Source: Thermococcus chitonophagus (GTDB lineage Archaea > Methanobacteriota_B > Thermococci > Thermococcales > Thermococcaceae). From it: a stretch of 64,000 nt of DNA. Below, in pieces: positions 40,288-42,832 of this stretch. Below the pieces are notes generated by a model. That model worked only from the letters and a program-made list of their open reading frames with translations, did not search any database and was not told where the DNA came from. The stretch covers positions 538,978 to 602,977 of the forward strand of contig NZ_CP015193.1 of the NCBI RefSeq assembly GCF_002214605.1, given 5' to 3'. The number at the start of each line of letters is the position of its first letter. Positions within the stretch are counted from its first letter, which is position 1. The translations under genes and the position numbers were made by a program.

Positions 40288-40353
40288 GTTATCACCCTGT
40301 TAAACTTAACCTTTATATTCAAATCAAGTTTTAGCTTAACATTGGGTGGTATC

Positions 40354-40944
40354 ATGAATGAGGAGACACTCCAAGCTTACGTTCCATACTTTAAGGCTAT
40401 CGTGGCAATAGTTACAATAGTGTACTTCGGCTACATCTTCCTAAACAGAAAAAAGTTCAAGGCAGCCAACGTAGCGGCGCTCTCTGCTGTGATGGCTGGG
40501 CTAGTTACGGCGATGACAATGGTAGTTAGAATACCAATTCCAGCATCCCAGGGCTACCTTAACTTTGGAGATATTATGATTATGCTAACCGCGGTTCTTT
40601 TTGGGCCTCTCATCGGAGGATTCGCGGGAGGCGTTGGTTCTGCTCTGGCGGATCTATTGGGGTACCCATCCTGGGCATTGTTCACCCTCGTGATTAAGGG
40701 GAGCGAGGGTATTGTCGTTGGATACTTGTCCAAGGGTGATGCTAGCTATGCAAGGATACTCGTAGCAACAACTCTTGGTGGAGCGGTGATGGTGATAGGC
40801 TATGTTAGCGTTGCCTACTTACTCTACGGCCCAGCTGGTGCAATAGGGGAGTTCTACAATGACATAGTCCAAGCAGTTTCGGGAATAATAATAGGCGGAG
40901 GGCTTGGATACGTTCTGAAGAAAAGGCTTGGGAATATAATCTAA
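40354..40944 (+). CDS. ECF transporter S component, probably thiamine-related
   Basis: A 196-residue membrane protein with six segments (after an extra N-terminal helix at residues 12-32) and the ECF S-component pattern AALSAVMAGLVTAMTMVVRIPIPASQGYLNFGDIMIMLTAVLFGPLIGGFAGGVGSALADLLG (residues about 44-105). S components bind a vitamin and dock on a shared energising module. The divergent thiL points to thiamine or a precursor, but that is context only. GGGTGGT precedes the ATG. A CbiO-type ATPase in this window (53837-54679) could belong to such a module. Confidence 0.85.
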   Translation: MNEETLQAYVPYFKAIVAIVTIVYFGYIFLNRKKFKAANVAALSAVMAGLVTAMTMVVRIPIPASQGYLNFGDIMIMLTAVLFGPLIGGFAGGVGSALADLLGYPSWALFTLVIKGSEGIVVGYLSKGDASYARILVATTLGGAVMVIGYVSVAYLLYGPAGAIGEFYNDIVQAVSGIIIGGGLGYVLKKRLGNII

Positions 40945-41283
40945 TCATTCCTCACTTATCTCTGGCAACTGTTTTATTATTTCTTCCCATTCCTCTTCCT
41001 CTAGGAAGGGCTCTATGGATATTCTCTTTGATGCTTTCTTTAGCTGTCCAAGGTATTTAGAGTCTGCGATCACGGCATCGGCCCCTAGCTCATCTATTAT
41101 GTATATCTTCAAGTTGACAAGTCTTGACAGCTCTTCAGTTAGATAGCCTTTAAATTCAGGGCCAACAAGCATTATATCGGGTTCTAAGCCTTCTTCCCTG
41201 AGTTCACTAATTGCCGTTGTTATCAGATCAATTAACTGGGAGATTATATCCGAACTTCCTTTTCCCATCATGACCACTCGCAT
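40945..41283 (-). CDS. Putative A-domain (family 4) encapsulin beside GAPDH
   Basis: A 112-residue protein. After a helix (SDIISQLIDLITTAISELREEG) comes EPDIMLVGPEFKGYLTEELSRL ... IYIIDELGADAVIADSKYLGQLKKASKRISIEPF. That order, strand, helix, strand, then a displayed loop, fits the A domain of HK97-type encapsulin shells. Short stand-alone A-domain proteins (DUF1884-like, called family 4 encapsulins) are known only from hyperthermophilic archaea and are encoded next to metabolic enzymes including GAPDH, as here (48-base gap). Start is uncertain: ATG 41283 would be nearly leaderless; ATGs at 41271 and 41268 follow GAGTGGTC. Assembly is not proven. Confidence 0.55.
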   Translation of the reverse strand: MRVVMMGKGSSDIISQLIDLITTAISELREEGLEPDIMLVGPEFKGYLTEELSRLVNLKIYIIDELGADAVIADSKYLGQLKKASKRISIEPFLEEEEWEEIIKQLPEISEE

Positions 41284-41331
41284 TACACACTATTAACAAA
41301 ATCCTTAAAATAATTTTTTGGGAGAGCAAAG

Positions 41332-42336
41332 TTATTTTATTATCCCTAAACTCTTGTTAGTCTTTCTTATGCTCTCCCACTTATCAGCTAACTCAAACAT
41401 GGCTCTTATGGCATCAATGTTCTCTGGAATCACGTCACTCTCTTGATGGACTGCTTGAATGTAGAACAATCTGTTACCTTTGATGCTTATGCTCTCCTTC
41501 CATACAGCTATCTCGTATAAGTTGTTCCACTCCCTGTGTAGATCCCTCGCGAACTCTATTATTTGAGCTGTACTTTCAAAGCCTTTCTCCTTCTCGAATA
41601 GTAGAACTCTTGTGGTGCTCTCGAATATGTTAATGACGTCCTCTGGCTTGAGGGGCTTCTTGAGTTCAACCATTATTGAGTGAACGTGCATTATCGTCGT
41701 TGGAACGACAAATGCAGAGGTCTCTATGTTTATCGGAATTACAGTCTGGACGTCAGGTCCGTGGTGGGATGGAACTGTCACAGTGGGCTTTATAGCGTTT
41801 ATTGGTCCCCTCTTTATGTCATTGGGATCTGCTGCTCTTCTGATCATTACAGCATAGACGTAGTCTATGTACTCCTGAATCGCGCTTAACGTTCTAACGA
41901 GGCCAGTTGTGTTGCACGAGACTACCCTAACGTAGTCCTTTCCGAGGGCCTTCTCGTAATTTGCTTGGGCTACGAATGAAACCTCTGCAACGTCTGCCTT
42001 TTCTCCCCCCTGGAATACTGCCTTAACTCCCGCTTTCTCGTACAAGGGCTTGTTTTTTGCTCCCATTCCCCCTGGGGTTGCGTCTACAATTACATCAACC
42101 TTCTCTAGAAGGTCATTAAGTGTTCCTGCAACTTCAAACCCGGCCTTCTCGAATCTTGGGAGAAACTCTTCGCTTGCTGCGTAAACGGGAATTCCCAACT
42201 CCTTGGCCCTATAGGCCTCAAAATCTGGTTTTGTCTTTGTAACTCCGATGAGCTCCATATCATCCTGCTTCATAACAGCATAAGCAACCCTTTTTCCAAT
42301 GGTTCCATAACCATTAATTCCCACTTTAACTTTCAT
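41332..42336 (-). CDS. gap: Glyceraldehyde-3-phosphate dehydrogenase (archaeal type)
   Basis: A 334-residue phosphorylating GAPDH, in Pyrococcus used mainly for gluconeogenesis because ferredoxin-linked GAPOR takes the glycolytic step. The Rossmann opening [18 protein letters not shown] is at residues 3-20, the catalytic Cys is in [12 protein letters not shown] near residue 140, and [12 protein letters not shown] follows. Length equals that of the P. woesei enzyme. GGGTGAGAGG selects the ATG at 42336. The small A-domain protein follows on the same strand but with its own AT-rich region between. Confidence 0.96.
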
Positions 42337-42441: not shown

Positions 42442-42624
42442 GTGGAAGAAGTTGAAATGTTGAAGAGAAGGATAAAGGAAATGGAGAAGCTTGTTGCATT
42501 GATGGAGAGGAAATATGAGGAGATGAAAAAGGACAATGAGCTCCTTAAAAAAGAGCTAACACGGCTTATGGAGGAAAATAAAGCCCTTTGGGGGAGGGGA
42601 TATGGAGGAGGAAGAGGAAATTGA
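42442..42624 (+). CDS. Small coiled-coil protein 1
   Basis: A 60-residue protein starting at GTG (GGTG ribosome site at 42431-42434). It is almost wholly a coiled coil (EEVEMLKRRIKEMEKLVALM ... LLKKELTRLMEEN) with a glycine-rich end. It overlaps the next small gene by 23 bases. No family is recognised; its place ahead of a ribosomal protein gene suggests a conserved leader cistron, but a chance frame is possible. Confidence 0.5.
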   Translation: MEEVEMLKRRIKEMEKLVALMERKYEEMKKDNELLKKELTRLMEENKALWGRGYGGGRGN

Positions 42625-42832
42625 AGAATTGAGAAGAAAACTCATTGAACTCTCCAAGAGGCAGGCGGCACTTAACTTCAAGATATATCAACTCTTCATG
42701 GAGAATAGAACGCTTGCAATAAGGCTTTCTGGGTACATAGCTGAAAATAAATCCCTCGGAGAGAACTATCACAACCCTGAGATTGAGAAAATAATTGATA
42801 AATACCTCTTTTCGGCTAGGAATAAGCTTTAA
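42602..42832 (+). CDS. Small coiled-coil protein 2
   Basis: A 76-residue charged helical protein ([52 protein letters not shown]) with a good GGGGGAGGGG site before its ATG. Together with the previous gene it looks like a duplicated coiled-coil pair: both have an 'E(N/D)K(A/S)L' end. It is 34 bases ahead of rpl35ae on the same strand. Function unknown. Confidence 0.6.

What the first reader, a model, noticed from the sequence alone, without database searches (positions are those of the whole stretch)
40945..42336. GAPDH next to a 112-residue encapsulin A-domain-like protein
Seen: a short protein with strand-helix-strand order EPDIMLVGPEF ... IYIIDELGADAVIADS ... RISIEP, directly downstream of gap. 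Known: family 4 'A-domain' encapsulins are truncated HK97-type shell proteins found only in hyperthermophilic archaea and encoded beside metabolic enzymes, GAPDH among them; none has a settled assembly. Inference: this pair could form a GAPDH scaffold or compartment that protects the enzyme or its unstable triose phosphates at high temperature.
Basis: partly seen in the sequence, partly recalled or inferred. Interest (0 to 1): 0.8.

Follow-up and report, generated by a model that had tools for sequence, protein, structure and literature searches.

The report
Known family 4B encapsulin beside GAPDH
The small protein beside the GAPDH gene is an already described virus-derived 'A-domain encapsulin', but it is next to GAPDH only in Pyrococcus; in every other Thermococcales genome examined that has it, its gene overlaps or directly follows deoC, so the idea of a dedicated GAPDH compartment is weak.

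Summary
The ORF at 40945-41283 (-) is a family 4B A-domain encapsulin (NCBIfam encap_f4b 7e-40, Pfam ENCP4 2e-30), 48 nt downstream of archaeal type II GAPDH. Two AlphaFold models match PDB 2pk8 and then mostly HK97-fold capsids and encapsulins. What I add is context. Across 94 Thermococcales genomes the GAPDH neighbour is confined to Pyrococcus: 7 of 8 genomes adjacent, the eighth split by a permease gene. In all 35 non-Pyrococcus enc4B neighbourhoods read, the gene sits at the end of deoC, usually overlapping its stop codon, and gap lies elsewhere. Well-assembled Pyrococcus genomes have no deoC. The downstream neighbour (an ECF transporter gene) is the same in both layouts, so this is one orthologue whose upstream enzyme gene changed. 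In Pyrococcus there is no translational coupling, GAPDH has one genus-diagnostic residue and no added tail, and P. furiosus gap is listed as a single-gene transcript. A closed GAPDH compartment is unlikely. A portable accessory protein first paired with DeoC, or an incidental neighbour, fit about equally well. Already known; moderate-low interest.

The parts
40945..41283 (-). enc4B: family 4B A-domain encapsulin (112 codons as an ORF; probable true start 41268, 107 aa)
   Evidence: PF08967 1.8e-30; NF041191 encap_f4b 7.2e-40; AlphaFold2 models pLDDT 77.9 and 83.3 with Foldseek hits to 2pk8 and then mostly HK97-fold capsids and encapsulins; conserved GCGAGTG before the codon at 41268
41332..42336 (-). 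gap: type II (archaeal) phosphorylating GAPDH, 334 aa
   Evidence: TIGR01546 5.1e-183; PDB 2czc 6e-208
41284..41331 (-). 48-nt gap-enc4B spacer; holds AAATTATTTTAAGG, a block much like that in three near relatives, possible TATA element (not significant against shuffles)
40345..40944 (+). ECF-type riboflavin transporter S component (ribU-like), convergent neighbour; the synteny anchor shared by the Pyrococcus (gap) and other (deoC) arrangements
   Evidence: PF07155 3.4e-31; synteny

Best explanation
The gene encodes a family 4B encapsulin, a cellular protein reduced to the A-domain of an HK97-type capsid protein. Shown: family, predicted fold, purifying selection, and orthology with the gene that sits at the end of deoC in the rest of the Thermococcales. 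Inferred: it works as a small oligomeric accessory (a dimer or ring, not a closed shell) that docks on an oligomeric metabolic enzyme and stabilises it. The original client was probably DeoC, made from an overlapping gene. Pyrococcus lost deoC, kept the accessory gene, and it now lies next to gap, whose enzyme shares the metabolite glyceraldehyde 3-phosphate with DeoC; GAPDH may have become the new client. The 4B-specific C-terminal acidic helix with the invariant Trp99, extended by a conserved Leu-Pro in Pyrococcus, is the likeliest docking element. Confidence is near-certain for the family and about 0.4 for this mechanism.
For: Family models. Fold: 2pk8, then about 40 of the top 50 PDB hits are HK97-fold capsids or encapsulins, including M. 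tuberculosis encapsulin 9bkx (rmsd 2.1 A over 74 columns, 23% identity) and the P. furiosus virus-like particle 2e0z. ENCP4 in 92 of 94 Thermococcales genomes, mostly two copies, none found outside the order in the phylum sample. In 33 of 33 non-Pyrococcus 4B loci fetched for enc4B, plus two found through deoC (L142, L143) and 21 named contigs, the neighbour is deoC. Start/stop overlap is usually 4, 8 or 14 nt. The neighbour is a bona fide deoC (TIGR00126 2e-91), absent from the 8 well-assembled Pyrococcus genomes. The convergent ribU-like neighbour is shared by both arrangements. Pyrococcus enc4B is a clade (98/89) under purifying selection with a genus-specific Leu-Pro tail. A P. furiosus GAPDH complex is cited in PMC8346489. 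The 4A paralogue shows a parallel swap, sulfhydrogenase in Pyrococcus and OsmC/MarC elsewhere.
Against: No interaction, oligomer or activity was tested here. enc4B is missing in three genomes that keep deoC (L141, L144, L145), so DeoC does not need it. GAPDH has one Pyrococcus-diagnostic column and no extension. In G011 a Trp/Tyr permease gene lies between gap and enc4B. P. furiosus gap is listed as a singleton transcript in PMC4706686. The evolutionary-rate test is ambiguous: relative to GAPDH, enc4B evolves alike in and outside Pyrococcus (4.33 against 4.19); relative to ribU it is faster in Pyrococcus (1.55 against 0.97).
Confidence: 0.4

Rival explanations
1. Incidental neighbour. In the Pyrococcus ancestor a rearrangement that removed deoC left the enc4B-ribU pair beside gap. 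enc4B is now a separate transcription unit and its client is neither GAPDH nor, necessarily, DeoC.
For: GAPDH association only in one genus; 48-85 nt spacers instead of start/stop overlap, and 1.57 kb with a permease gene in G011; gap listed as singleton in P. furiosus; no GAPDH co-adaptation; both 4A and 4B neighbours change between clades.
Against: Order gap-enc4B kept in 7 of 8 Pyrococcus; GAPDH complex in P. furiosus cited in PMC8346489; both successive neighbours act on glyceraldehyde 3-phosphate. A separate promoter is not demonstrated (TATA scan not above shuffles).
Confidence: 0.33
2. Dedicated GAPDH scaffold: gap and enc4B form a two-gene operon and the A-domain protein forms an open scaffold or cap that stabilises GAPDH or channels triose phosphates during gluconeogenesis (the published hypothesis and the first reader's).
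For: Adjacency and same strand; GAPDH-enc4B complex by native fractionation, second hand; HK97 A-domain fold; 7 of 8 Pyrococcus share the pair.
Against: All non-Pyrococcus genomes of at least 90% completeness have a close gap, and none of the 35 enc4B neighbourhoods read there holds gap; there enc4B belongs to deoC. No targeting-peptide extension on GAPDH, 334 aa in nearly all orthologues with or without the neighbour.
Confidence: 0.22
3. Closed shell: the A-domain protein assembles into an icosahedral compartment enclosing GAPDH.
For: Related full-length HK97 encapsulins do so (established knowledge; the paper discusses a closed A-domain shell as a possibility).
Against: At about 107 aa it lacks the N-arm, E-loop and P-domain that make inter-capsomer contacts in HK97 shells; 2PK8 crystallised as a dimer (PMC8346489); no targeting peptide on GAPDH.
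Confidence: 0.03

Closest known systems
Family 4B encapsulin, GAPDH operon type (PMC8346489; NCBIfam NF041191; Pfam PF08967)
   Same: Sequence family, length, predicted fold, position downstream of gap in Pyrococcus
   Different: Nothing in the locus itself. The paper text read here does not state that the GAPDH type is Pyrococcus-only, that deoC is missing there, or that the upstream gene changed while the downstream one stayed
Family 4B encapsulin, DeoC operon type
   Same: Orthologous gene with the same convergent ribU-like neighbour
   Different: Start of enc4B overlaps or directly follows the deoC stop; shorter C-terminal tail without the Leu-Pro extension
PF0899 (PDB 2PK8), family 4A encapsulin
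   Same: Same fold, 35% identity in the structure match
   Different: 4A has a longer loop between the helices and no C-terminal acidic helix; its neighbour is sulfhydrogenase or OsmC/MarC
Family 1 encapsulin (P. furiosus virus-like particle 2e0z, M. tuberculosis 9bkx)
   Same: A-domain fold
   Different: Full HK97 fold, known shell and cargo; the window's genome has none

Membership tests
Family 4B A-domain encapsulin | Scores above the curated NF041191 encap_f4b and PF08967 cut-offs | tested here: met
   135.3 bits against 90; 105.4 against 31.4
Family 4B A-domain encapsulin | About 100 aa, A-domain of the HK97 fold only | tested here: met
   107-112 aa; models match 2pk8 and HK97 capsids over about 74 columns
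Family 4B A-domain encapsulin | Gene downstream of gap or deoC | tested here: met
   gap here; deoC in the other genera
Encapsulin in the functional sense | Self-assembly into an icosahedral shell | not testable with these tools
   No multimer prediction or experiment available; the lattice-forming parts of HK97 are absent from the sequence
Encapsulin in the functional sense | Cargo bears a targeting peptide or extension | tested here: not met
   GAPDH is 334 aa in Pyrococcus and 332-335 aa in the other Thermococcales read, no added tail; an internal docking site is not excluded
gap-enc4B operon | Translational coupling or overlapping genes | tested here: not met
   48-85 nt spacers in 7 Pyrococcus, 1.57 kb in G011
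gap-enc4B operon | Co-transcription | tested here: inconclusive
   P. furiosus PF1874 listed as singleton (PMC4706686 Table 1); promoter scan of the spacer not significant

The most novel reading that the evidence does not exclude
Domesticated capsid A-domains act as portable stabilisers that change their enzyme client while keeping their own genomic anchor: DeoC to GAPDH for 4B (both use glyceraldehyde 3-phosphate), and OsmC/MarC versus sulfhydrogenase for 4A, in both cases dividing Pyrococcus from the rest of the Thermococcales.
Probability: 0.25. Interest if true: 0.6.

Novelty: already known. Interest (0 to 1): 0.35.

Why it matters
Family 4 encapsulins are uncharacterised capsid-derived proteins. 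The neighbour exchange gives a direct test of function: compare binding of the Pyrococcus and Thermococcus 4B proteins to GAPDH and DeoC. It also warns against reading the gap neighbour as evidence of a GAPDH compartment.

Tried and rejected
Sequence profiles against PHROGs and PDB chains to reach phage capsids: no capsid hit beyond 2pk8, so the HK97 link rests on structure. A GAPDH-spacer-enc fusion read through the stops was dropped before any folding because the separate enc rows misaligned to GAPDH and no inter-domain error is reported. TATA scan of the spacer: not above shuffles. A DeoC N-terminal fragment in Pyrococcus-like G009 was dismissed as probable contamination: its contig is at most 68% identical to G010, although both gap proteins are 98-99% identical to the window's. 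Evolutionary-rate shift after loss of deoC: ambiguous. PF11495 TrmB and phosphotransferase IIB hits are weak and were ignored. The primary proteomics paper (PMC2668238) is not held.

Full report
1. Observation. The small protein is a family 4B encapsulin by curated models (PF08967 1.8e-30; NF041191 encap_f4b 135.3 bits against a cut-off of 90) and is related to the solved P. furiosus PF0899, 2pk8. GAPDH is the archaeal type II enzyme (TIGR01546; closest structure 2czc). A GCGAGTG block before the sixth codon, conserved in near relatives, suggests the start is 41268, giving 107 aa.

2. Is it an HK97 A-domain? Sequence profiles do not reach phage capsids. Two AlphaFold2 models (pLDDT 77.9 and 83.3) both give 2pk8 first and then mostly HK97-fold proteins: HK97, D3, SaPI1, FCWL1 and T1 capsids, and the H. 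ochraceum, M. xanthus, M. tuberculosis and P. furiosus encapsulins. Roughly 40 of the top 50 hits in the second search are HK97-fold by my reading of the titles. Individual E-values are modest (0.04-0.5), so the weight lies in the enrichment and in alignments such as 9bkx (rmsd 2.1 A over 74 columns, probability 0.99). Two models of nearly the same sequence are not fully independent. The viral library also returns many major capsid proteins. The fold assignment is therefore supported, and it was already published.

3. Distribution. 92 of 94 genomes of the order have the family, all 74 of high quality, and most have two copies; the 21 further genomes of the phylum sample show none. The 4B copy is next to gap only in Pyrococcus: 7 of 8 genomes at 48-85 nt, while in G011 a Trp/Tyr permease gene on the other strand intervenes. 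(The genus name is my reading of the proteins and of genome sizes; the tool gives only 'same genus'.) In the other genera deoC (TIGR00126) is the upstream gene in all 35 enc4B neighbourhoods read (33 fetched for enc4B, L072-L104, plus L142 and L143 found through deoC) and in 21 named contigs. The enc4B start usually overlaps the deoC stop by 4, 8 or 14 nt. gap is present elsewhere in those genomes. The 8 well-assembled Pyrococcus genomes have no deoC; their single PF01791 match is a longer, separate gene found in all genera. Three genomes keep deoC and have lost enc4B, with 30-122 bp left between deoC and ribU (L141, L144, L145). Downstream, the convergent ECF transporter gene is shared by both arrangements, so this is the same gene with a different upstream partner. 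The enc4B tree makes Pyrococcus one clade with G011 branching first.

4. Coupling to GAPDH. There is no start/stop overlap. P. furiosus gap is listed as a singleton transcript in PMC4706686. GAPDH length is 334 aa in Pyrococcus and 332-335 in the other Thermococcales, and only Val147 separates Pyrococcus GAPDH from the rest. enc4B in contrast has a Pyrococcus-only Leu-Pro tail extension. Selection keeps enc4B (window versus G006 pN 0.064, pS 0.728). Relative rates do not settle whether constraint changed. The positive evidence is the complex cited second hand in PMC8346489; the source paper is not held.

5. The paralogue. The 4A copy lies 32-36 nt after the sulfhydrogenase genes in six of the seven Pyrococcus genomes read and apart from them in the seventh (G007), whereas elsewhere its neighbours include OsmC and MarC-like genes. 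Both subfamilies thus changed neighbours between Pyrococcus and the other genera. The paper names these operon types but the text read here does not describe this split.

6. Mechanism. The most economical reading is a small accessory oligomer for an enzyme, originally DeoC, possibly passed to GAPDH, with the 4B-specific C-terminal helix as docking element. Oligomer, docking and stabilisation are all inferred; none was tested. An incidental neighbour is nearly as likely. A closed shell is unlikely because the lattice-building parts of HK97 are absent.

7. Verdict. Ordinary membership in a published family and operon type; the added value is the lineage restriction and neighbour exchange, which lower the GAPDH-compartment reading and supply a clean experiment.

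Noticed in passing
L146-L165 (4A neighbourhoods); own copy at G000:C1:1624768-1625043: The 4A paralogue shows a parallel neighbour change: sulfhydrogenase upstream in Pyrococcus, OsmC/MarC-like genes in other genera.
   Followed up: partly
L141, L144, L145: enc4B is missing between deoC and ribU in G073, G093 and G087 although deoC and the surrounding order remain.
   Followed up: yes
window 41332-42336 and its orthologues: The GAPDH tree does not group the eight Pyrococcus species: five sit among Thermococcus sequences (holding them together: p-AU 0.076). Possible gene exchange or weak signal.
   Followed up: partly
window 42442-42832: Two small overlapping coiled-coil ORFs lie between gap and ribosomal protein L35Ae in the window but not in the other seven Pyrococcus; relatives lie about 5 kb from gap in L132 and L140.
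   Followed up: no
L176 (G009 contig C134): A contig in a Pyrococcus-like draft genome ends in the start of deoC and is at most 68% identical to its near relative G010: probable Thermococcus contamination of the assembly.
   Followed up: yes
L071 5999-7572: In G011 a Trp/Tyr permease gene lies between gap and enc4B on the opposite strand.
   Followed up: yes
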